A stretch of 64,000 nt of DNA, taken from positions 1,488,001 to 1,552,000 of the forward strand of contig NZ_CP006271.1 in NCBI RefSeq assembly GCF_000737595.1, read 5' to 3'. A program made the translations under genes and the position numbers. The notes under the pieces were generated by a model. The model was not told where the DNA came from. It saw only the letters and a list, made by a program, of their open reading frames with translations, and made no database searches. Numbering within the stretch: position 1 is the stretch's first letter; every line of letters starts with the position of its first letter. Source of the DNA: Synechococcus sp. KORDI-52 (GTDB taxonomy: Bacteria; Cyanobacteriota; Cyanobacteriia; PCC-6307; Cyanobiaceae). Below, piece after piece: positions 25,528 to 64,000 of this stretch.

Positions 25528-27177
25528 ATGCGATACGACCCGGGGCGGGATCTGGGCTGGTTGTTGCTACGTCCCTGGGTCGCCATCCCGCGCCTGGTTC
25601 AGGTGCTGTGGTCCCTGGCGGGGCTGGTGCTGGTGCTGCTCCTGCGTGGAGGCAGCAGCGACGCTGATGTTCAGCGGGGTTTGGCGCGCCGGATTCTCAA
25701 CACCCTCACGGGTCTTGGGCCTTGTTTCATCAAATTGGGGCAGGCCCTCTCCACCCGACCCGATCTGGTGCGTCGGGATTGGCTGGAGGAGCTGACCCGC
25801 CTTCAGGATGATCTGCCGGCCTTTCCCCATGCCACCGCCCTGGCCTGCATCCGCGAAGAGCTCGGTGCTCCCGCCGAGGAGTTGTTTGAGGAGTTCCCCG
25901 ACACGCCGATCGCCGCTGCCAGTCTCGGGCAGGTCTACAAGGCCCGTTTGCAGGGCAACCACTGGGTCGCGGTGAAGGTGCAGCGCCCTAACCTCACGTT
26001 CATCCTGCGGCGGGATCTGGTGCTGATCCGGACCCTGGGCGTGCTGACGGCACCGCTGCTGCCGCTCAACCTTGGCTTCGGGCTGGGCGGAATCATCGAC
26101 GAGTTTGGCCGCAGCTTGTTTGAGGAGATCGACTATGGGATGGAGGCGGCCAACGCCGAGAGGTTTGCCGCTCTTTTCGCTGACAACGATGCGGTTTACA
26201 TCCCGAGGGTGGAGCGGATGCTCAGCTCCACCCGGGTGCTCACCACCACCTGGATCGACGGCGCCAAGATGCGTGACAGTGACGAGCTGCGCTCTAAGCG
26301 GCTCGATCCGACAGCCCTGATCCGCACTGGTGTGATCTGCGGACTTCAGCAACTGCTGGAATTCGGGTATTTCCACGCCGATCCGCACCCCGGCAACCTG
26401 TTTGCCCTGCCGGGGCGAACAGGGGACCTCGGTCATGTGGGCTATGTCGACTTCGGCATGATGGATTCCATCAGTGACAGCGACCGCCTCACCCTGACCG
26501 GCGCTGTGGTGCATCTGATCAACCGTGATTTCTCCGGGCTGGCTCGGGACTTCCAATCCCTTGGCTTTCTCAGCCCCACCGCTGATCTCACGCCGATCAT
26601 CCCAGCCCTTGAGGAGGTTCTGGGCGGAAGCCTTGGCGACTCGGTTGGATCGTTCAACTTCAAGGCGATCACGGATCGTTTCTCGGAGCTGATGTTTGAT
26701 TACCCCTTCCGGGTTCCGGCGCGCTTCGCCTTGATCATCCGCGCGGTCGTCAGTCAGGAAGGACTGGCCCTGCGTCTTGACCCCAACTTCCGGATCATCG
26801 CCGTGGCCTATCCCTACGTGGCCCGTCGACTGCTGGCGGGAGACACCAGCGAAATGCGCGAGAAGCTGCTGGAGGTGATCTTTGATGAATCAGGCCGCCT
26901 GCGCCTGGATCGACTTGAAAGTCTCCTGGATGTGGTGGGTCAGGACGCTCCCGCTCCAGGCAAGGAACTGATCCCTGTGGCCGGCGCGGGTCTGCGTCTG
27001 CTGCTCAGCCGCGATGGTGCTGACCTGCGTCGGCGCTTGTTGATGACGCTGATCCGTGATGATCGGTTGCACACGGATGACGTGCGAGCCCTGGTTGGTC
27101 TGCTCGGCCGCACCTTTGGCCCCGGCAGGTTGGCCGGTGGGTTGCTTCAGCGTCTCAACCCCCTGGCGGCAGCGTGA
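25528..27177 (+). CDS. ABC1/AarF (UbiB) atypical kinase family protein
   Basis: A 549-residue protein. The family marks are IKLGQALSTRPDL (KxGQ), the alanine-rich loop AAASLGQVYKA, the lysine in VAVKVQRP, and HADPHPGN with YVDFGM. UbiB proteins are atypical kinases or ATPases needed for quinone synthesis; cyanobacterial and plastid members affect plastoquinone and tocopherol. A C-terminal hydrophobic part is present. Its 3' end overlaps the convergent channel-like gene by 23 bases. Confidence 0.92.
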   Translation: MRYDPGRDLGWLLLRPWVAIPRLVQVLWSLAGLVLVLLLRGGSSDADVQRGLARRILNTLTGLGPCFIKLGQALSTRPDLVRRDWLEELTRLQDDLPAFPHATALACIREELGAPAEELFEEFPDTPIAAASLGQVYKARLQGNHWVAVKVQRPNLTFILRRDLVLIRTLGVLTAPLLPLNLGFGLGGIIDEFGRSLFEEIDYGMEAANAERFAALFADNDAVYIPRVERMLSSTRVLTTTWIDGAKMRDSDELRSKRLDPTALIRTGVICGLQQLLEFGYFHADPHPGNLFALPGRTGDLGHVGYVDFGMMDSISDSDRLTLTGAVVHLINRDFSGLARDFQSLGFLSPTADLTPIIPALEEVLGGSLGDSVGSFNFKAITDRFSELMFDYPFRVPARFALIIRAVVSQEGLALRLDPNFRIIAVAYPYVARRLLAGDTSEMREKLLEVIFDESGRLRLDRLESLLDVVGQDAPAPGKELIPVAGAGLRLLLSRDGADLRRRLLMTLIRDDRLHTDDVRALVGLLGRTFGPGRLAGGLLQRLNPLAAA

Positions 27178-28384
27178 TCCAGCAGCCAAAAACGCTGATG
27201 GAACTGAAGATCACAACAGTGATGGGCCAGAGCTCATCCAGCTGCTCCAAGCGCTGCTGTTTCCGATCCCTGGCCTCGCCTTCCGGCATGGCCTCCAGTT
27301 CCCCATAGCGTCGTCCGATGAAGATCACAAGGATGAACGCCAGCAATGTGACCACGTAGGCGATCACATACACCTGATCAAGAAACGTGAGGTAAGGCAG
27401 ATCAGGAAGTTCGTCCCGGTAGGTCTGCTGCAGGAACACCAGGGTCAACAGAACGGTGACCGGGATTCCTGCGCGTGCGTCCTGTTCATCTGCTCGGACT
27501 TTGAACACCAGCAGAACCATCGCCATCACCACCAGCAGAGGCAGGATCAATCGCCAGAACGCCGACCATGAGGAGGTGCCGAAGGAGATGTCGAAAATGA
27601 CCAGGCTGTAGTCATCGGCGCTTCCCCCCAGCCCGAAGTTCGTGGCGTAGTTGTGGCGGTATTCAGCAATGGACCAGCCTCGGTTCAGCCAGCCGATGAT
27701 TCCTGCGAACAACCCCATCCCACTGTTCTGGATGTCGGGTTCGAAGCGGAAATTGGGATAGTCCAGTGCGCCATTCACGTCTTCCATTTCGAGGACAAGG
27801 GGCAGGCTCACCGTCACGAAGGGGAAGTGCCTGAAGCTGGCCTTGTCGATGTAAAAGCGACCGATGTAGCTGAACAGCTGGTAATACGAACCGTCCTCGT
27901 TGTGCACAGGGGCCGAGGACATCGGCGTCAGGACCGGATCGGCATCGGAGAGCAAGCCATTCACCAGGGTGACCCCCTGTTCAATCGTTTGATCCCTTTC
28001 GCTCAGGTAACGCTGAAGGTCCTCCCCCCATCGCATCCAGACATACCCGTTGGAGGAGTAACTGGGGATGCTCAGATCCAGGTCATAGGTGCTGGTGGCG
28101 TAGATCCCCACCTGCACGTGATGCGCGGCTTCGTTCAGGCCCTGTTGATCCAGGACCGCCTCCTGGTCGGACAGCTTTTCACCCCGCAGGGGACTCCAAC
28201 CGCTACTGGCCATTCGTCGACTGTCCGTCGTGAGCGCCCGCGATGCTGAGGACAACCGCAGTGCATCACGGCTGGGGACACGACCCACATCAAGCTGGTT
28301 AATGCCGGAGAAGGCCAGAAGACCGGCGAGCAGAATTGAAACAACGGCAAGGATGTTCCAGTGCTTCTGTTTCTTGGAGGCCAT
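27155..28384 (-). CDS. Pentameric ligand-gated ion channel homologue (Cys-loop superfamily)
   Basis: A 409-residue membrane protein with the exact bacterial pLGIC layout. Residues 10-28 form an N-terminal signal or anchor helix. A beta-rich extracellular domain follows (about 85-275), with VQVGIYATSTYDLD, FRHFPF at 184-189 (compare FRRYPF of GLIC) and GWSIAEY. Four helices come next: M1 275-297, M2 305-325, M3 334-357 and M4 385-404. LPDLPY at 326-331 between M2 and M3 matches the LPKTPY loop of GLIC. There is no Cys pair in the loop, as in other bacterial members. Family assigned by my alignment from memory; ion selectivity and ligand unknown. Confidence 0.82.
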   Translation of the reverse strand: MASKKQKHWNILAVVSILLAGLLAFSGINQLDVGRVPSRDALRLSSASRALTTDSRRMASSGWSPLRGEKLSDQEAVLDQQGLNEAAHHVQVGIYATSTYDLDLSIPSYSSNGYVWMRWGEDLQRYLSERDQTIEQGVTLVNGLLSDADPVLTPMSSAPVHNEDGSYYQLFSYIGRFYIDKASFRHFPFVTVSLPLVLEMEDVNGALDYPNFRFEPDIQNSGMGLFAGIIGWLNRGWSIAEYRHNYATNFGLGGSADDYSLVIFDISFGTSSWSAFWRLILPLLVVMAMVLLVFKVRADEQDARAGIPVTVLLTLVFLQQTYRDELPDLPYLTFLDQVYVIAYVVTLLAFILVIFIGRRYGELEAMPEGEARDRKQQRLEQLDELWPITVVIFSSISVFGCWITLPPGG

Positions 28385-29554
28385 CTGCGGCGCCGTTCTG
28401 GTGTCACTCTGACGTGCTGGGCGCTACTCAGCAGTGGCCTGGTGATGCTCTTGTCACCACGCCCTGTCGACGCTCGGCCACCTGACAGCGGGCAATCATC
28501 CAAGGTTTTGGTGCTTGGGCAGTCGTTACCGCTTTCCGGACCGTCGGCGCAACTCGGTCAGGAGTATCGACGCGGGGCCTTGGCCTGGTTTGAAGCCGTG
28601 AACCGTGCGGGAGGGATTCACGGACGCAAGATCAAGTTGATCAGTCTCGATGACAAATACGAGCCGTCTCAGACGCTGATCAACACGCGCCAGCTGTTGA
28701 GACGCCGTGATCTGTTGGCCTTGTTCGGTTACGTGGGAACGCCCACCACAAAAGTGGCTTTGCCGTTGCTCGAAGCTGCCGAGGTGCCGTTGGTGGCTCC
28801 GCTGACGGGGGCCAGTCTGCTGCGACGACCTGACCTGCGCATGGTGTTCAACATGCGCAGCAGTTACCGCCGGGAGATTGCAGCGATCGTCGACGAGCTT
28901 GTGCGCGATGCCCACCACCGCATTGCAATCGTCTACCAGGACGATGCCTTTGGTCAGGATGGTCTCGATGGTGCCCTTGCCGCTCTCAGCAGCCATGGGC
29001 TTCAACCCGTGGTGGTCACCACTGTGAAGCGCAACTCAGCTCAGGTGGGGAAAGCGCTTGGTGATCTGATGGCGGTCAATCCCAATGGAATCGTTCTCGT
29101 TTCTGCCTATGTGAGTTCGGCGGCCCTGTCCACCGCGCTACGGGCTGAGGGAAGCAGCGCTCAGATCATGAATGTGTCCTTCGTCGGGACCCAGGCCCTG
29201 CACAAGGCGATGCCGGTGGGTGAAACCAATGGCATCGGTGTGGCTCAGGTGGTGCCATTCCCCTGGAATCGATGGATCCCCGTCGTGGCTGACTACCAGC
29301 GGTGTCTGCGGCTGCGTGATCCGGCAACGGGGTTTGGCTTCACCAGTTTTGAGGGGTATCTCGCGGCGCGGATGATCACTGAAGCGCTGGAGCGCACCGG
29401 AAAGAACCCGACGCGTCAGTCCCTCGTCGAGGCTCTCGAGTCGATCCGTGACCTCGATCTGGGGGGCTTCCAACTGCAGATGGGGCCCAATGATCACAAT
29501 GCGAGCGAATTTGTCGAACTTACCTTTCTCGGCTCACAAAGCTGGGAACCTTGA
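28361..29554 (+). CDS. Type I periplasmic solute-binding protein (LivJ/ANF-receptor fold)
   Basis: A 397-residue binding protein of the branched-chain amino acid/amide class. The N-terminal region is a signal segment (about 15-38). The mature protein opens GQSLPLSGPSAQLGQEYRRG and continues NRAGGIHGRKIKLI, family hallmarks. No ABC permease or ATPase lies nearby. It begins head to head with the pLGIC homologue, with starts overlapping by 24 bases, so the two are likely co-regulated. GTG 28361 has a fair AAGGA site upstream; in-frame CTG 28385 with a GGAGG is an alternative. Confidence 0.85.
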   Translation: MLLFLGGHLRRRSGVTLTCWALLSSGLVMLLSPRPVDARPPDSGQSSKVLVLGQSLPLSGPSAQLGQEYRRGALAWFEAVNRAGGIHGRKIKLISLDDKYEPSQTLINTRQLLRRRDLLALFGYVGTPTTKVALPLLEAAEVPLVAPLTGASLLRRPDLRMVFNMRSSYRREIAAIVDELVRDAHHRIAIVYQDDAFGQDGLDGALAALSSHGLQPVVVTTVKRNSAQVGKALGDLMAVNPNGIVLVSAYVSSAALSTALRAEGSSAQIMNVSFVGTQALHKAMPVGETNGIGVAQVVPFPWNRWIPVVADYQRCLRLRDPATGFGFTSFEGYLAARMITEALERTGKNPTRQSLVEALESIRDLDLGGFQLQMGPNDHNASEFVELTFLGSQSWEP

Positions 29555-29596
29555 GCTGGGGATCGCTAAGGTCGCAGTCCTTCATGAACGGCGTCG

Positions 29597-30016
29597 ATGC
29601 CTGAGGAGATCAGCGCCCAGGAGCTTGAACAGCTGCTCCAGATGATGACCTTGCCCCAGCCCCCTTACCTGCTGGCTGGCATTGGTTTGTTGATGGGTGT
29701 GCTCTGCGGCCTGACCTTCGGCCGTCAGGTGCAGAACAAACTGGACGGCTGGAAACAGGACCGGCTCCCCCTGCTGCCTCTGGGCACAGCCGAGATCAAC
29801 CTCAGCTACGCCGGCACCCTGATTGGTGTGACCCTTTTCATCGGCTGCTGCCTTCAGATCTTCGGGTTTGCCTCCGGCGCTGCCCTGCTGGTGGCTCTGC
29901 TGCTCTCGCTGCTGACCGGCGGTGCCTTGTTCTCTCAGCTCGAGCGCCTGATGCAGCAGGTGGAAGCTGGCAACTTCAAAGCGGTTGATTTCGACAACTT
30001 CGACGAATTTTTCTGA
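29597..30016 (+). CDS. Conserved-looking membrane protein, unknown
   Basis: A 139-residue protein with an acidic N-terminus, then about three hydrophobic helices (about 25-45, 70-90 and 92-112) and an acidic amphipathic tail ending FDNFDEFF. No family recognised. It follows the binding-protein gene by 42 bases on the same strand, so it could be part of the same transcript; whether it belongs to the channel system is open. Confidence 0.7.
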   Translation: MPEEISAQELEQLLQMMTLPQPPYLLAGIGLLMGVLCGLTFGRQVQNKLDGWKQDRLPLLPLGTAEINLSYAGTLIGVTLFIGCCLQIFGFASGAALLVALLLSLLTGGALFSQLERLMQQVEAGNFKAVDFDNFDEFF

Positions 30017-57966: not shown

Positions 57967-58162
57967 GCGATGGATCAATGATGACGTCTTTGCGTTGCAA
58001 CAGGTCAACCCTGATGGGACGACTCCGTTGAACCTGGCATTGCCCAGCGATTACGCCAATGCTTCGGATTCAGGGAGACGTCCATTTGCTCCGCACGCTG
58101 CTGCTGCATGCCAACGCTCAAGCGTTGGCTGCAGTTGAGAAAAGCCCCCATCCCAGGACTCT
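57967..58162. other. Leader of the regulator gene, left part
   Basis: About 196 bases after the first porin. I see no clear gene, and no terminator hairpin that I can support. The operator pair begins at 58164. Confidence 0.4.
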
Positions 58163-58163
58163 T

Positions 58164-58221
58164 ATTGAGAATGACTTGCAATATCGACAGGGACTCTGTA
58201 CTGTTGCGAGTAATTCTCAAT
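58164..58221. promoter_or_regulatory. Pair of inverted 18-bp operator-like motifs
   Basis: Site 1 (58164-58181) reads ATTGAGAATGACTTGCAA. Site 2 (58204-58221) is its near reverse complement (ATTGAGAATTACTCGCAA on the other strand). Centres are 40 bases apart, about four helical turns. The TGAGAAT half resembles a Fur half-site. The pair precedes the regulator start by 11 bases, suggesting Fur control or autoregulation. Confidence 0.6.
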
Positions 58222-58232
58222 CGCGATAGGTC

Positions 58233-58835
58233 GTGACGGCATCTGCTTACCGTTTTCTGTCGGACAACCCGACTGCTCCTCTGAGCATGCCTCGGTCGCA
58301 GACCGTGCTGATTGATCCCGCAGGCCGTGATCAGGCCACTGTTCTTGAGGTGATTGAAGGGGCGTGCCGAGTGTATTGCCCCTGTGAAGAAACGGAGGGA
58401 ATGACCCTGGCGTTTCTGCAGTCGGGAGATCGCCTGCGGACCGATCGTCTCTGCAGTGATGGCGTTTGCATTGAGGCGCTTACCGCCTTGAAATTTCGGC
58501 GTGATGCTGTCTCAGCCGACGAGCTGGGTCTTGACGCAGTGAATGAATGGACATTGCAGCTCCTGCGAGTCCGCCATCTCGGTCAGGCAGAGCAGCGTCT
58601 TCACGCTCTTTTGGCCCTTTTGGTGAACCGATTAGGTGTGCGCTGCAGCGATTGTTATCAGCTTCCTTTCCGTCTCACTCATGATCGCTTTGGTGAGCTG
58701 ATTGGTGCTACACGGGTAACCACAACGCGTCTTCTCTCGAAATGGCGACAAGCAGATCTTGTGGCCATGGCGTCTGGAGATGTCACCATGCGGATTTCAC
58801 CTGAGCTCATCAATTCTTCACCACTCCAATTCTGA
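58233..58835 (+). CDS. Crp/Fnr-family transcription regulator, cysteine-rich
   Basis: A 200-residue regulator. The N-terminal half keeps the Crp/Fnr beta-roll shape (GACRVYCPCEETEGMTLAFLQSGDRL), but the cyclic-nucleotide pocket is not obvious. The C-terminal part has a winged helix (HDRFGELIGATRVTTTRLLSKW). Seven cysteines (45, 49, 51, 74, 79, 138 and 141) could bind a metal or an Fe-S cluster. It lies among iron genes and under paired operator-like motifs, so iron-responsive control is a reasonable inference. GTG 58233 is the start. Confidence 0.8.
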   Translation: MTASAYRFLSDNPTAPLSMPRSQTVLIDPAGRDQATVLEVIEGACRVYCPCEETEGMTLAFLQSGDRLRTDRLCSDGVCIEALTALKFRRDAVSADELGLDAVNEWTLQLLRVRHLGQAEQRLHALLALLVNRLGVRCSDCYQLPFRLTHDRFGELIGATRVTTTRLLSKWRQADLVAMASGDVTMRISPELINSSPLQF

Positions 58836-59190
58836 ATGTCGTGAACTCTTGCGGTTTGCTTGGTGACCTTTGCAGAGAAGTTGAATGGATTTGGCGGCGT
58901 ATACAGTGCGCCAGCCGTTCCATCCAACGATGCCAGGATCAGCGATTAGAACAACGTCTCGTTGCAGAGATATCTATTCACCGTAATAGGTGTTTAACCA
59001 TAAAAGGTCTTTTGCCTGAAATAAATTACTATTTCAAATCTCATTCGATTCAAACGTTTTTGCTTGAAGAGTTGCTTCGGCGATGTCTGATTGCAACTCA
59101 AGTTGCTTGTTAGATGCACTGAATAAAGTTAGAGAAACACTTGGATTTGTTGGGATTCAATCGGGCTTGTTTTATTGGTTTCTACTATCC
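58836..59190. other. AT-rich intergenic stretch
   Basis: About 355 bases between the regulator and ferritin. A short open frame at 58841-59113 has no ribosome-binding site and an odd Cys-rich composition, so I do not call it. No RNA or terminator recognised. Confidence 0.45.
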
Positions 59191-59769
59191 TTAAAGAGAT
59201 GCAGGTTTATTGTTGCCTTGATCAAGCTCGTTGTCAATCAGCAGCAGGGCTGCTGATTGATTGTCTGCAAACTTTACTCGTCCCAGTAGGTGTGCAAATT
59301 CATGCTCTGATTGTGTCTGCATCTCCACCATTGAGTCAAGAAACACTGTTGTTCTTGTGTCGTTTGTACGCTCCGCCATGGAATACAGCTGTTGTAAAGA
59401 GGCTGTGACGTCAACTTCCATTTGGAATGCCGACGCCATTACATCAGCTGGAGATGACCAGCTTTGCAAGGGGGCATCCACTACTTTCAATTCAACGCTT
59501 TGTCCTCTCGCGATGATGTATTCGGCAAACTTTGCAGCGTGCTCATGTTCACTATGGGACTCGTCGCGGAAGAATCTTGAGAATCCCCGTAATTCACGTT
59601 CAGCAAACCAGATTGCTGCCGCGAAATAGGACGCGTGGGCTTGCCTCTCCATATTGAGATGAGCCTGGATAGCGTTCAGCAGATCAGTATCAATTGCTTC
59701 GGCAATCGCCCGGCCTGCTGGACCGCAAACAATCGAAGATACAGGGCTTGAATTAGATGTTGGAAGCAT
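59191..59769 (-). CDS. Ferritin (SynFtn-like)
   Basis: A 192-residue iron-storage protein. The four-helix ferritin pattern shows ferroxidase-site residues Glu41 with Tyr48, Glu57, and the ExxH pair around Glu74-His77 in HSEHEHAAKF, plus a later Glu in MQTQSEHEF. Similar to the ferritin described from marine Synechococcus. Two Fur-like boxes lie upstream (59849-59880). It is oriented toward the regulator. Confidence 0.9.
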   Translation of the reverse strand: MLPTSNSSPVSSIVCGPAGRAIAEAIDTDLLNAIQAHLNMERQAHASYFAAAIWFAERELRGFSRFFRDESHSEHEHAAKFAEYIIARGQSVELKVVDAPLQSWSSPADVMASAFQMEVDVTASLQQLYSMAERTNDTRTTVFLDSMVEMQTQSEHEFAHLLGRVKFADNQSAALLLIDNELDQGNNKPASL

Positions 59770-59848
59770 TTCTTACCCGTTAAAAATTGGATGATACACA
59801 CAAGCAAATTGAAATGCATGCTTGACGTGCCATATGCACCAAGTTAAA

Positions 59849-59880
59849 TGAGAGTCATTATCAATAGTTAATCACTCTCA
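59849..59880. promoter_or_regulatory. Two inverted Fur-like boxes upstream of ferritin
   Basis: Box 1 (59849-59863) reads TGAGAGTCATTATCA; box 2 (59866-59880) on the other strand reads TGAGAGTGATTAACT. Centres are 17 bases apart. Both fit the 7-1-7 Fur shape imperfectly. They lie about 80 bases upstream of the ferritin start and just past the futA stop. Confidence 0.6.
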
Positions 59881-59914
59881 GGGTTTGCTTCTGAAGCTGG
59901 CTTAAAATTGATCC

Positions 59915-60919
59915 TTAATGCCAGCCGGCCTGCGCCATGATGGCCACCGCTTTCTTCTGGTTGGCTCCGATGGCGCTTATCGCAACGTTGTCCGGAGTGA
60001 ATCCCCCGAACTCTTTCAAAACCGTTGATGAACCCTGACTCTTCAACGGGTATTCATAGGTGGGGCCTGCGAGGGCTTTGCTTCCTTGGGGAGATGAAAG
60101 AAATTCAATCAGCTTCAGCGCTTCGCTTTTGTTTTTGGCTGACTTGGCAATTCCAGCAGCACTGATGTTGACATGGGCTGGATTGGGCATGATGAGCTTG
60201 ACGTTTTGAGCCAGTTTTTGATCACCACTGCCATTGTCACCTGCCTTCATTCTCGCCAGGTAATAATGATTGACCACGCCAACCCCACATTTGCCTTGGC
60301 CAACAGCACGGATGAGAGACGTGTCTCCTGAGAAGAAGGGCTGCTTGACGTTACTCACCATCTTTTTGACCCAGCTGGATGCTCCAGCTTGCCCTTTTAA
60401 AACAATCTGGTCGGCAACAAGAGATTGGTTGTAGACATTCTTTCTTTTACGCAGGCAAAGTTTTCCTTTCAATTGCGGTTGGCCAAGGTCGTCGTAGGTG
60501 CGGATCTTGGAGGGATCGACGATGTTGGGGTTGACGATGATCGAGCGCACACGTCGTGTTAACCCAAACCAGCGGTTGGAAGGATCCCGATATCGCGCTG
60601 GGATGTTCGCTTGAAGGCTGCTGCTCTGAACAGACTGCAGCAATCCTGCCTTGGCCGCATCATTGATGCGTGCGGCATCCACCAACAGAATCAGATCCGC
60701 CTTTGAATTGCTTCCCTCACGTTTTAAACGTTCCACCAGCGAAATCCCGGTGGCCTCAATGAGCCGAACCTTGATACCGGTTTTTTCGCTAAAACGTTTA
60801 AAAACCTGTCGGTCAGTGTTGTAATGGCGGCCTGAGTAAACACGCACTTCCTGGGCACGAACAGCAGCGCATCCCATGATGGGAACGACAAGGCACAGGC
60901 CAGTGAAGACCTTCAACAT
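59915..60919 (-). CDS. futA: Iron(III) ABC transporter binding protein (FutA/IdiA)
   Basis: A 334-residue periplasmic protein. Signal segment about residues 1-22; mature start EVRVYSGRHYNTD, the FutA/IdiA opening with Tyr residues likely coordinating Fe. Further blocks are GISLVERLKREG, DLILLVDAARIN and a typical C-terminal GLTRRVRSIIVN region. ATG 60919 has GAGAG upstream; ATG 60934 is an alternative. The permease and ATPase are not in the window. An IMGC in the signal could be a lipobox, but the AxA-type cleavage fits better. Confidence 0.9.
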   Translation of the reverse strand: MLKVFTGLCLVVPIMGCAAVRAQEVRVYSGRHYNTDRQVFKRFSEKTGIKVRLIEATGISLVERLKREGSNSKADLILLVDAARINDAAKAGLLQSVQSSSLQANIPARYRDPSNRWFGLTRRVRSIIVNPNIVDPSKIRTYDDLGQPQLKGKLCLRKRKNVYNQSLVADQIVLKGQAGASSWVKKMVSNVKQPFFSGDTSLIRAVGQGKCGVGVVNHYYLARMKAGDNGSGDQKLAQNVKLIMPNPAHVNISAAGIAKSAKNKSEALKLIEFLSSPQGSKALAGPTYEYPLKSQGSSTVLKEFGGFTPDNVAISAIGANQKKAVAIMAQAGWH

Positions 60920-61016
60920 TGCTTCTCTCTTCATTTGACCATCATAGGTCTTGGAAGTGATCTCCCTGAGCCATTTTGTTTGTCGCTTTTGTATCATTTG
61001 GGCGACTGTCTAGGGT

Positions 61017-61709
61017 ATGGACAACGTTGTGCCCTTGTTACGGATGGATCATCTTGTGCGTCCATTGCTTTCACAGGCCAAGACTGACTCCATTTGTCAA
61101 CAACTGAGTGCCACCGACCTGCCTTGGCTGGACGGGAAACTGACGGCAGGGGAACAAGCAGCCTCGGTCAAAAAGAATCATCAACTCGATCCTGAATCCC
61201 CTCTAGCGAATCAGGTAGCCCATACGGTATCTGAGGCGTTAAAAGCGGATGCTTTGATCAGGAGCTTTGCCTTGATTCGTAAGGTCCACAGTGTCTTGAT
61301 CTCCTGTAGTGCCTTGGGTGATGGATATGGGTGGCATGTGGATAATCCGTTTTCTCGCTACGGCCGGCGAGACCTATCTTTTACTGTTTTTCTAAGTGAT
61401 AAGTCGTCTTATCAAGGGGGTATTTTGCAATTGCAGACTGGTCAGAATGGTGAGGAATTTCGTTGTTCAGCCGGTGAAGTGGTTGTTTATCCAAGCACCT
61501 GCTTGCATTGCGTTTCCCCGGTAACCGAAGGGACGCGGTACGCCTGTGTGGGTTGGATTGAAAGCTATGTCAAATCCGCTGAAGACCGTGCGTTGTTGTT
61601 CAGTCTTGATGCGGGAGCACGTGGACTCTTGGCCAAGCACGGACGATCCGATGAACTTGATCTTATGTTCCAGGCCTATTCCAATGCTGTGCGCCGTCTA
61701 TCCAATTGA
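61017..61709 (+). CDS. PKHD-type Fe(II)/2-oxoglutarate hydroxylase (PiuC/YbiX)
   Basis: A 230-residue dioxygenase with iron ligands His and Asp in GWHVDNPF and His in CLHCVSPV, and a 2-oxoglutarate-binding Arg in GTRYACVGW. PiuC proteins are linked to iron uptake regulons, often beside TonB receptors, though their substrates are unknown. Divergent from futA, about 97 bases apart. Family firm, role in iron metabolism inferred. Confidence 0.88.
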   Translation: MDNVVPLLRMDHLVRPLLSQAKTDSICQQLSATDLPWLDGKLTAGEQAASVKKNHQLDPESPLANQVAHTVSEALKADALIRSFALIRKVHSVLISCSALGDGYGWHVDNPFSRYGRRDLSFTVFLSDKSSYQGGILQLQTGQNGEEFRCSAGEVVVYPSTCLHCVSPVTEGTRYACVGWIESYVKSAEDRALLFSLDAGARGLLAKHGRSDELDLMFQAYSNAVRRLSN

Positions 61710-61796
61710 TGGTGTTGCAAATGATCATTGATTGTGACTCATCCGAGCCGCCACGGGTGCGAGTGTTGCATAGGATTGATTTTTGGATTGTGAGAC

Positions 61797-62027
61797 ATGC
61801 CCAAGCCCTCTGCGATCTCTGTGTTTCTGGCTGCGTCTTCTTTGCTGTTGGCGACAGCAGATCTACCGCTCGTCCAAGCCCAGGATGGCGGAGGCTTAAA
61901 GGAGTGGTCGACTGATCAGGACGTCGATGAGGACAGTGTGATGAATGATGAGGCGAAGGTTTTGGACCAAAAATCAAAACAAGAAAAGATTTGTGTTCCG
62001 ATCGGTGAAGGTGAGAACTGCTGGTGA
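61797..62027 (+). CDS. Small secreted protein with cysteine pair
   Basis: A 76-residue protein with a signal peptide (about 1-28, ending VQA-QDG) and an acidic mature part (KEWSTDQDVDEDSV) ending KICVPIGEGENCW with two cysteines nine residues apart. A terminator lies 49 bases downstream. No family recognised. Its place between PiuC-like and porin genes suggests an envelope role in iron handling, but nothing shows it. Confidence 0.6.
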   Translation: MPKPSAISVFLAASSLLLATADLPLVQAQDGGGLKEWSTDQDVDEDSVMNDEAKVLDQKSKQEKICVPIGEGENCW

Positions 62028-62075
62028 TTCTTATCCCTTGGTCCAGGTTGACAGGGATCGAAGCTTCTTTTGAGT

Positions 62076-62104
62076 AAAAAAAGCGCCCCGAGGGGCGCTT
62101 TTTG
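62076..62104. terminator. Bidirectional intrinsic terminator
   Basis: A hairpin AAGCGCCCC...GGGGCGCTT with A-run on its left and T-run on its right. It can end the small secreted gene and the convergent second porin. Confidence 0.88.
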
Positions 62105-62120
62105 TTTGATGAGACGATGA

Positions 62121-63656
62121 TCAGAATTTGAAGGTCGTCTTGACCAGACCACCGAATTTGTTGGCTCCTTTGATTTGATCTCTACCCCTGGCATCATCAA
62201 CCCAAAACACCGCGGGTGTGATGGTGATGTTGTCGGTTACGCGGAAGTCGTAGTAACCCTCGATGGCAAAGTTTTGATCGCCTGGGTCGTCATTGCCCTT
62301 GATGTTTGTGGCATAACTGGAGTAAGACCCTACGCCAAGTCCCAGCTTGTTGCCTTCGATAAAGGCGTCACTCCAATTCAGGCCAACCATCCAGCCAAAC
62401 ACCTCTTCGGCGTTCCCACGCTTGTCAGCATCAGCCCAGCCGAAGTCCACACCAGCACTGATGGTGGGGATGAAACCGCTCTCTTCAGGAGACCAGTAAC
62501 CGCGTAGGCCCACGGCATTCAGAGGATTGGCCAAATCCTTGGCCGTTGGCGTGGAAAAGCCCATTGCAGCATTGGCGGCATTTCCACCTTTCTGCCCTGC
62601 ATTCTTCCAGGAATACAACCCTGACAGATACCACTTCCGATTGCCGTACCCAATTTGGCTGAGCACGTATCCATCGGTTTTCTTGCCGAACAATCCCTTT
62701 TTGTTCGTGCTCTTCGCGCCGTCACCACCGTCAGCAACATAGTTCAGCGCGATGTTGAATGCTGGGTCACCAGGATCGACATCCTGACGCCATTGAACAC
62801 CAAAACCTTGACCTGTGCTGGCACCCAATACAGCACCATAACCACCCAGCTTGAATGCCTTCAGAATCGGCTTATACCGGGTGGGTGTTTCAACCATGTA
62901 GTAGTTCTCGATCAACGCACCCACGGTGACCTTGAACTCGTTGCCAAGAGGGAAGCTGTACCAAAGTTTGTCAACTTTTATGGTGTTATCGCCTTTCTTT
63001 GCATCGTTTAAGAACGAGTCTGATTGTGTAAAGACGTTATTCATGTTGCCCGTGCGAAGACGGGTGTATAAACGATCTTTACCGGTGAAGGAGGTGTCGA
63101 GATTCAGCGTGTATCGATAGGAAAAGCTGAATCCGTCATCCGTGCAGTTTCCACCCTTTTTGTTGCACAAGTCACTATCCGAATAAGCAACAGCACCGGT
63201 GAAGAAGTCAGCCTGGCCACGGAGTTTGGTGGTGGTGGAGAACTGGGTGGCTTCCAGTTCGCCGACGCGGGCCTCGAGACCGTCAACACGACCCTTGAGG
63301 ATGGCCAGCTCGGTTTCGAATTCCTTGAGCAGGCGACGCAGCTCGTCGGTCACTTCTGTGATCCGGTCGAGGCAGGCGTTCAGCAGGGCAGCCGCTTCGT
63401 AGCGGGTCATCGCCCGGTTGCCTCGGAAGGTGCCGTTGGGGTAGCCAGCCACGCAGCCGTACTGCTCCACTAGGTTGGCCAGAGCCTGATAGGCCCAGTC
63501 GGTGGGGTAGACGTCGGAGAACTGGGTGACGCTGGTGACTTGGTCAGCCGATGAGTACTCAGAAACACCGTTGATGTTGAGATCGGCGGCATTGGCGCCA
63601 CTGGCCATCAAGCCAAGGGCGGCAGGAGCCACCAGCAGTTGCTGGAAAAGCTTCAT
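62121..63656 (-). CDS. SomA-type porin with SLH domain, second copy
   Basis: A 511-residue outer-membrane porin. Signal peptide 1-23 (ANA-ADL), intact SLH motif GYPNGTFRGNRAMTRYEAA, coiled coil, then a beta-barrel ending TTFKF. Its barrel differs strongly from the 56422-57966 copy while the SLH/coiled-coil part is nearly identical in DNA. ATG 63656 is preferred with GAGGA upstream. The barrel contains a Cys-containing loop (DLCNKKGGNCTDD). Confidence 0.9.
   Translation of the reverse strand: MKLFQQLLVAPAALGLMASGANAADLNINGVSEYSSADQVTSVTQFSDVYPTDWAYQALANLVEQYGCVAGYPNGTFRGNRAMTRYEAAALLNACLDRITEVTDELRRLLKEFETELAILKGRVDGLEARVGELEATQFSTTTKLRGQADFFTGAVAYSDSDLCNKKGGNCTDDGFSFSYRYTLNLDTSFTGKDRLYTRLRTGNMNNVFTQSDSFLNDAKKGDNTIKVDKLWYSFPLGNEFKVTVGALIENYYMVETPTRYKPILKAFKLGGYGAVLGASTGQGFGVQWRQDVDPGDPAFNIALNYVADGGDGAKSTNKKGLFGKKTDGYVLSQIGYGNRKWYLSGLYSWKNAGQKGGNAANAAMGFSTPTAKDLANPLNAVGLRGYWSPEESGFIPTISAGVDFGWADADKRGNAEEVFGWMVGLNWSDAFIEGNKLGLGVGSYSSYATNIKGNDDPGDQNFAIEGYYDFRVTDNITITPAVFWVDDARGRDQIKGANKFGGLVKTTFKF
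63222..63548 (-). repeat. Inverted repeat arm 2 (porin SLH/coiled-coil coding region)
   Basis: Partner of 56530-56853. The two arms differ by a few silent changes and by one codon (YP in this copy, S in the other). Inverted orientation spanning the iron region. Confidence 0.85.
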
Positions 63657-64000
63657 TGGATTCCTCACACAGGAAAGCCCGAAACGGGCGACCCTATTCT
63701 GCTCTTTCGTTGTGTTGTCCGTTACTATTTCCCTTCATTTAAAAGTATCTTTCTATACATCTAGGAGTTCTTTTGATCCAACTCTTTGCTGATTCTCTCG
63801 ATGCAGGCCAGCACTCTATGCCGGCCGTTGGTCTGCGTTGACTCGCATTCGATGACTTGCGACCTTGTGTCTTTTGTTACGCTTTCAAGGTGGCCTCTGT
63901 CTTGCAAGGGCCTGTATTGTCTTGGGATAGATTTTCTGAGACCTTGGCTGAGCCTTCCGAAAAGCGTCTTTCAGTAAATAAGAAAAAGGGTTGTAAGAAA
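63657..64000. other. AT-rich region upstream of the second porin
   Basis: About 344 bases to the window edge. It must hold the promoter for the porin. I see no Fur-type box, RNA gene or convincing open frame. A direct terminator is not visible. Confidence 0.45.

What the first reader, a model, noticed from the sequence alone, without database searches (positions are those of the whole stretch)
27155..29554. Ligand-gated ion channel homologue divergent from a type I periplasmic binding protein
The leftward gene has the extracellular beta domain and four helices of bacterial pLGICs (FRHFPF, GWSIAEY, LPDLPY). Its start overlaps that of a LivJ/ANF-type binding protein that lacks any ABC permease or ATPase nearby. 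A binding protein that hands its ligand to a channel would be a sensing or ion-flux system. I recall that bacterial pLGICs fused to or next to periplasmic binding domains have been reported, but cannot verify a specific case here.
Basis: partly seen in the sequence, partly recalled or inferred. Interest (0 to 1): 0.85.

Follow-up and report, generated by a model that had tools for sequence, protein, structure and literature searches.

The report
Ion channel paired with receptor-type binding protein
A cyanobacterium carries a bacterial relative of nerve-cell receptor channels next to a periplasmic binding protein of a kind that elsewhere sits beside chemotaxis receptors, and the two genes have stayed together in many related bacteria, which suggests a two-part chemical sensor that opens an ion pore.

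Summary
[quoted passage not shown] 28361-29554 (+) is a type I periplasmic binding protein (PBP-I). The 24-bp overlap is real. In 330 sampled family genomes, 46 of 51 close pLGIC copies lie head-to-head with this PBP-I; 5 more pairs, of a diverged paralogue, are tail-to-tail. In the genus the pair is a same-site cassette: 8 filled, 22 empty sites. Duplicated pairs move as a unit. Cooperation of bacterial pLGICs with fused PBP-I or neighbouring PBP-II was proposed in 2004 (PMC549065), so this is a new variant of a known kind. Most likely the ligand-loaded PBP-I gates or modulates the channel. No ligand, interaction or current was shown, and 4 sampled genomes keep the channel without the partner.

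The parts
27155..28384 (-). pLGIC homologue, 409 aa: N-terminal hydrophobic helix, periplasmic beta domain, four transmembrane helices
28361..29554 (+). type I periplasmic binding protein (Peripla_BP_6), 397 aa, GTG start, N-terminal signal-like stretch
28361..28384 (.). 24-bp overlap of the two 5' ends; present in 8 of 8 pair-bearing genomes of the genus
28295..28378 (-). pLGIC residues 3-30, hydrophobic helix: signal peptide or uncleaved anchor, not decided
   Evidence: model
28223..28294 (-). pLGIC residues 31-54, N-terminal segment conserved at protein level ahead of the ligand-binding domain
   Evidence: 8 genus members; family; synonymous sites not specially constrained
27578..28123 (-). 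pLGIC residues 88-269, ligand-binding beta domain
27815..27835 (-). pLGIC residues 184-190 (FRHFPFV), the Pro-loop; Pro kept, the usual Asp of the [F/Y]PxD motif replaced by Val
27500..27571 (-). M1, residues 272-295
27416..27484 (-). M2, residues 301-323; DARAGIPVTVLLTLVFLQQTY
27290..27385 (-). M3, residues 334-365
27176..27277 (-). M4, residues 370-403
27178..29596 (.). extent of the same-site cassette: between the ABC1/UbiB-like kinase gene (25528-27177, +) and the 139-aa gene (29597-30016, +), which lie 45-74 bp apart in 22 genomes without the pair. The 3' end of the pLGIC gene overlaps the end of the kinase gene by 23 bp

Best explanation
The two genes encode a two-part sensor in the cell envelope. 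The soluble PBP-I captures a small solute (probably an amino-acid-like or other small organic molecule) in the periplasm and, in its loaded closed form, docks on the periplasmic domain of the pLGIC pentamer, or delivers the ligand to it, and so changes the opening of the pore. The output is an ion flux and a change of membrane potential, not uptake and not CheA signalling. Shown by computation here: the identity and fold of both proteins, their long-lasting linkage, loss, gain and duplication as a unit, the absence of CheW from the genus, the absence of an unpartnered permease in the genome. Inferred: physical contact, direction of the effect, ligand, ion selectivity.
For: pLGIC fold. PBP-I fold. 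Linkage: 46 of 51 close pLGIC copies head-to-head with the PBP-I; of the 5 others one is cut by a contig end; 21 of 23 close loci from named genomes (partly the same genomes). Five diverged paralogue pairs (all in genus g57) are linked tail-to-tail, so a shared promoter region is not what holds them together. Same-site cassette, 8 filled, 22 empty. Distances of the partners correlate, r 0.92 for 22 pairs, 0.84 for the 19 head-to-head ones, 0 of 5000 permutations as high in each (shared ancestry contributes); in L076 with two pairs, the second pair is nearest to the same other loci for both proteins. The PBP-I subfamily lies next to methyl-accepting chemotaxis proteins in 7 of 14 opened plasmid records and a hybrid kinase in one, and 9 of 9 examined PBP-I paralogues without a nearby pLGIC lie next to bestrophin-like genes. 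LivH/LivM-type permease only at the Urt locus with its own UrtA. CheW 0 of 34 genus genomes, control rings in 7 of 14. Binding of loaded solute-binding proteins to receptors is an established mode for chemoreceptors, kinases and cyclases (PMC9602780, PMC11113362, passages).
Against: No ligand, contact or current is shown. Four of 330 sampled genomes (G102, G206, G218, G304) keep the close pLGIC without the PBP-I beside it; three of them have no PBP-I match at all and G102 only a 28% one, so the partner is not obligatory. Diverged pLGICs in the family (rows under 53% identity) mostly have no such PBP-I nearby: 28 of 35 rows, and their nearest relative in another family, G045, has none. The pLGIC clade lacks the Asp and Arg of the canonical coupling salt bridge, so gating may differ or be lost. 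Correlated distances are expected for any two linked, vertically inherited genes.
Confidence: 0.58

Rival explanations
1. The two genes are only co-regulated: both answer to the same nutrient, the channel binds its own ligand or protons in its own pocket, and the PBP-I acts as a periplasmic buffer or partner of another protein, without touching the channel.
For: Head-to-head genes with nearly abutting or overlapping starts are natural co-regulation units. The channel keeps a dense, conserved set of aromatic residues in its own beta domain. Four genomes keep the channel alone.
Against: Five paralogous pairs are tail-to-tail and still adjacent; the subfamily's other neighbours are receptors.
Confidence: 0.22
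2. The PBP-I serves an ABC transporter encoded elsewhere; its place beside the channel is inherited without functional meaning.
For: Pfam and NCBIfam place it in the ABC-type substrate-binding families; the plasmid relatives are annotated as ABC substrate-binding proteins.
Against: The genome's only LivH/LivM-type permease pair has its own UrtA-like gene; linkage survives duplication, change of orientation and 22 clean losses. No ABC permease lies directly beside the gene in the 11 annotated plasmid records opened (in one, Ruegeria, a sugar ABC system lies two genes upstream).
Confidence: 0.07
3. The pLGIC homologue is no longer a ligand-gated channel but a membrane receptor or scaffold that passes a signal from the PBP-I by another route.
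For: Asp of the Pro-loop and Arg before M1 are missing in 22 of 22 close orthologues; Jaiteh et al. describe both as conserved and salt-bridged (PMC4795631, passages).
Against: The pore helix is the most conserved part: R0', T6', L9', T10', F13' and Q16' are the same in 30 of 30 rows, which fits a working pore. No cytoplasmic signalling domain is present.
Confidence: 0.1

Closest known systems
Bacterial pLGICs GLIC, ELIC, sTeLIC
   Same: Fold over residues 84-406 (Z 22.9 to GLIC), four transmembrane helices, conserved Pro of the Pro-loop
   Different: 17-19% identity; Asp of [F/Y]PxD and Arg before M1 replaced; conserved N-terminal segment; linked PBP-I gene
PBP-I fusions and PBP-II neighbours of bacterial pLGICs (Tasneem et al. 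2004, PMC549065)
   Same: pLGIC combined with a periplasmic binding module, proposed there to concentrate or sense the ligand
   Different: Here the PBP-I is a separate gene, head-to-head; the text describes cyanobacterial forms as having a simple architecture. The organisms here lack CheW, against that paper's chemotaxis reading
Solute-binding proteins that activate receptors (binding protein with chemoreceptor, kinase or cyclase; PMC9602780, PMC11113362)
   Same: Adjacent genes, loaded binding protein as the proposed activator; the same PBP-I subfamily sits beside chemotaxis receptors on plasmids
   Different: The receptor is an ion channel; the term 'ion channel' does not occur in either of these two papers
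UrtA-like PBP-I plus pLGIC gene pairs in L072, L086, L087, L088
   Same: Stand-alone PBP-I next to a pLGIC
   Different: Same-strand arrangement, lipoprotein-like UrtA-type PBP of another branch, pLGIC only 24-29% identical
DeCLIC (pLGIC with an N-terminal modulatory domain)
   Same: A periplasmic accessory module on a bacterial pLGIC (PMC9897478, PMC12664993, passages)
   Different: Fused jelly-roll lobes and calcium, not a separate binding protein

Membership tests
pentameric ligand-gated ion channels | beta-sandwich ligand-binding domain followed by four transmembrane helices | tested here: met
pentameric ligand-gated ion channels | sequence similarity over the whole length to known members | tested here: met
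   ELIC 4.6e-8 over residues 90-360; Pfam membrane-domain score 26 against a cut-off of 28.1
pentameric ligand-gated ion channels | Pro at the tip of the beta6-beta7 loop | tested here: met
   P188 in 30 of 30 rows; called the only absolutely conserved residue in PMC4795631
pentameric ligand-gated ion channels | Asp of [F/Y]PxD paired with Arg before M1 (highly conserved, not absolute) | tested here: not met
   V190 and T270 in the window; Asp absent in 22 of 22 close orthologues, Arg absent at that column in 30 of 30 rows. Since PMC4795631 names only the Pro as absolute, this lowers confidence in canonical gating, not in homology
pentameric ligand-gated ion channels | pentamer, gated ion conduction | not testable with these tools
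   needs reconstitution
type I periplasmic binding proteins (Peripla_BP_6) | two-lobed PBP-I fold and family profile | tested here: met
   173.9 bits against a cut-off of 31.7; Z 32.9/32.8
type I periplasmic binding proteins (Peripla_BP_6) | ligand binding and export to the periplasm | not testable with these tools
   ligand unknown; N-terminal hydrophobic stretch only
ABC importer substrate-binding protein | cognate permease and ATPase genes nearby or without another binding protein | tested here: not met
   only PF02653 pair of the genome lies about 0.96 Mb away with its own UrtA-like gene; other permease families not searched
receptor-activating solute-binding protein systems | binding-protein gene adjacent to its receptor gene | tested here: met
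   46 of 51 close copies
receptor-activating solute-binding protein systems | loaded binding protein binds the receptor | not testable with these tools
   needs binding assay
pLGIC with PBP as chemotaxis receptor (proposal of PMC549065) | coupling to chemotaxis or motility | tested here: not met
   CheW 0 of 34 genus genomes, control rings in 7 of 14; swm_rep_I repeats in 3 of 8 pair-bearing and 6 of 26 other genomes, not in the window's own. Motility of other kinds not excluded

The most novel reading that the evidence does not exclude
Pentameric ion channels are a further receptor class for solute-binding proteins. One PBP-I subfamily acts as an exchangeable front end, wired to chemotaxis receptors or kinases in motile bacteria and, in cyanobacteria without CheW, to pLGICs or to bestrophin-like channels; the pLGICs of this clade have changed their gating so that opening depends on the docked binding protein rather than on the Asp-Arg coupling of classical members.
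Probability: 0.35. Interest if true: 0.85.

Novelty: new variant of a known kind. Interest (0 to 1): 0.62.

Why it matters
The natural role and natural ligands of most bacterial relatives of neurotransmitter receptors are unknown. A conserved partner with a ligand pocket makes the question testable: find what the binding protein binds, then ask whether it opens the channel. If true, solute-binding proteins would signal through ion flux as well as through kinases, cyclases and chemoreceptors, in abundant marine and freshwater picocyanobacteria that lack CheW.

Tried and rejected
Motility: the swm_rep_I repeat model (TIGR02059) does not track the pair: 3 of 8 pair-bearing genomes and 6 of 26 others match; the window's own genome has none (none of the 14 control genomes rang, so only the genus hits show that the search works).

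Promoter explanation for the conserved N-terminal segment: synonymous sites in the 8 genus members are somewhat constrained in codons 1-30 (ratio 1.76 and 1.67, others mostly 1.0-1.5, but 1.74 at codons 91-105 and 1.63 at 391-405) and not specially in codons 31-60 (1.37 and 1.03). So the conservation of residues 31-54 is at protein level, and the overlap effect is modest.

Residues that separate pLGIC-linked from bestrophin-linked PBP-I: none passed my threshold.

A search for the pair in other phyla by whole genomes was not possible; plasmid records were used instead. pLGIC itself has no match among the plasmids. Papers: searches with pLGIC/PBP/operon/cyanobacteria terms listed no paper on this pair; 'bestrophin' with 'periplasmic binding protein' gave one paper, on palladium stress (listing only). 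The library lacks most subscription papers, so this is weak evidence of absence.

The 619-aa gene two genes upstream of diverged pLGICs (L099, L084) looked Cache-like by eye but has no Pfam or NCBIfam match, so I make no claim.
Full report
What is there. The window's minus-strand gene 27155-28384 codes for a 409-residue pLGIC homologue, and the plus-strand gene 28361-29554 for a 397-residue type I periplasmic binding protein; their 5' ends overlap by 24 bp. The channel matches ELIC over residues 90-360 (E=4.6e-8) and its AlphaFold model (mean pLDDT 73) matches GLIC (Foldseek 5.5e-20; Z 22.9, rmsd 3.1, 286 residues). The Pfam membrane-domain match is slightly below its cut-off. The binding protein is a Peripla_BP_6 protein, nearest in the PDB to 4kv7 and 3lop.

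Linkage. In the genus (34 genomes with the window's own) the channel is in 8 and the PBP-I in the same 8, plus a fragment at a contig end of G019. In 22 of 22 genomes without the pair whose two flanking genes (ABC1/UbiB-like kinase and a 139-aa protein) were both found on one contig, those genes are 45-74 bp apart; in the 8 with the pair they are 2394-3355 bp apart; 4 genomes could not be resolved. The pair therefore comes or goes as a unit at one site. Since freshwater relatives hold the gene at the same site (L079 and others), repeated loss is the simpler history (inference).

In a sample of 330 family genomes (joined by hand), 46 of 51 pLGIC rows with at least 53% identity have the PBP-I head-to-head within 2 kb. 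The five others: one is cut by a contig end (G270), four have no PBP-I beside them (G102, G206, G218, G304; three of these genomes have no PBP-I match anywhere, G102 only a 28% one). Of 14 rows at 40-52% identity, 2 are head-to-head, 5 tail-to-tail and 7 have none; of 21 rows listed below 40%, none has it. All five tail-to-tail pairs are in one genus (g57).

Co-evolution. For 22 pairs the distances of the two proteins correlate (r 0.92; 0.84 for the 19 head-to-head pairs; 0 of 5000 permutations as high in each). Linked genes share ancestry, so this alone proves little. More telling, L076 carries two pairs, and the second pair's two proteins are each closest to the same set of other loci (L069, L071, L075, L103), while the first pair's are closest to L080.

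What the binding protein is. Relatives at 31-42% identity occur on 74 plasmid records, 58 of them Phaeobacter. I opened 14. Seven have a methyl-accepting chemotaxis protein directly downstream: Thioclava, Terrarubrum, two Phaeobacter, Ruegeria, Deinococcus and Halomonas, where Pfam identified it. Burkholderia has a hybrid histidine kinase followed by an EAL-domain gene. Eleftheria has an HDOD protein; Comamonas, Piscinibacter and Variovorax show no receptor; two Cupriavidus records are unannotated and no receptor was seen in the ORF list. In the cyanobacterial family, 14 of 67 PBP-I rows have no listed pLGIC nearby. Nine of these were examined and all nine lie directly before a bestrophin-like gene: five by Pfam PF14023, four by 71-97% identity to those; the other five rows are fragments and were not examined. 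Six of the nine are followed by a PstS-like gene (one confirmed by profile). In a tree of 42 sequences the pLGIC-linked and bestrophin-linked proteins form one group (90/85) next to the chemotaxis-linked ones, the bestrophin-linked set is one side of a branch (92/84) and the tail-to-tail set too (100/100); the bootstrap had not settled and deep forks are open. So this looks like a receptor-type binding-protein subfamily with changing output partners.

The channel. M2 carries D-2', R0', G or S at 2', T6', L9', F13', Q16'; the residues at 0', 6', 9', 10', 13' and 16' are the same in 30 of 30 rows (position numbers are from my reading of the alignment to ELIC). The acidic residue at -2' recalls GLIC (recalled), but selectivity is not predicted. 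The Asp of the [F/Y]PxD motif is absent in 22 of 22 close orthologues and the pre-M1 Arg in 30 of 30 rows at the aligned column; four UrtA-linked or related rows keep the Asp. PMC4795631 (passages) describes both as conserved and salt-bridged. Gating in this clade should therefore differ.

Other partners of pLGICs seen. UrtA-like PBP-I genes lie directly upstream of more distant pLGICs in L086, L087, L088 and a second locus of L072 (profiles for L072, L086, L088 and for L072, L088). G023 has a second pLGIC next to a PBP-II-looking gene without a profile match, a bestrophin gene and a TMEM175-like gene.

Function. CheW is absent from 34 of 34 genus genomes, so the chemotaxis-receptor reading of PMC549065 does not hold here in its usual form. 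The genome's only LivH/LivM-type permeases have their own UrtA-like gene. I therefore favour a two-part sensor in which the loaded PBP-I acts on the channel. The papers seen on receptor activation by binding proteins list chemoreceptors, kinases and cyclases, and 'ion channel' does not occur in the two searched.

Novelty and limits. The general idea is from 2004; what is new to me is the stand-alone, head-to-head PBP-I with its quantified linkage, the receptor-type subfamily with bestrophin-like partners, and the changed coupling residues. Paper searches found nothing on the pair, in a library that lacks most subscription journals. Contact, ligand, current and selectivity are untested.

Noticed in passing
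L061 5692-9585 (genome G023): Cluster of channel-like genes: TMEM175-like, a PBP-II-looking gene without profile match, a second pLGIC, and a divergent bestrophin gene.
   Followed up: partly
L091, L092, L093, L094, L095, L098: Putative operon PBP-I, bestrophin-like PF14023, PstS-like binding protein; L096 and L097 lack the third gene.
   Followed up: partly
L056 3352-5382 (genome G014): PBP-I paralogue interrupted (two reading frames) before a bestrophin-like gene.
   Followed up: partly
L072 5040-8690; L086 4660-7226; L087 8451-11017; L088 7200-9664: UrtA-like PBP-I gene next to a distant pLGIC on the same strand, in Synechococcus, Myxococcales, Luminiphilus and Halioglobus assemblies.
   Followed up: partly
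L099 7800-12098, L084 2357-6663, L105 1770-5732: Membrane protein of unknown family, then a second reading frame (MFS transporter by profile in L084), then a diverged pLGIC on one strand.
   Followed up: partly
L054 5589-10113 (genome G045): A 32-34% pLGIC without PBP-I neighbour lies beside an MscS channel with a cNMP-binding domain and a CHASE2 nucleotide cyclase.
   Followed up: no
window 29597-30016: 139-aa protein with 79-100% identity in 31 of 34 genus genomes and no Pfam match above cut-off.
   Followed up: no
window 58000-64000: G+C falls to 0.49-0.52; by eye a ferritin-like, an iron-binding-protein-like and two porin-like genes (no search made).
   Followed up: no
L069, L083: Contigs filed under Bifidobacterium breve and Phycisphaerae carry Synechococcus-like pLGIC/PBP-I pairs; probably misbinned or mislabelled assemblies.
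   Followed up: no
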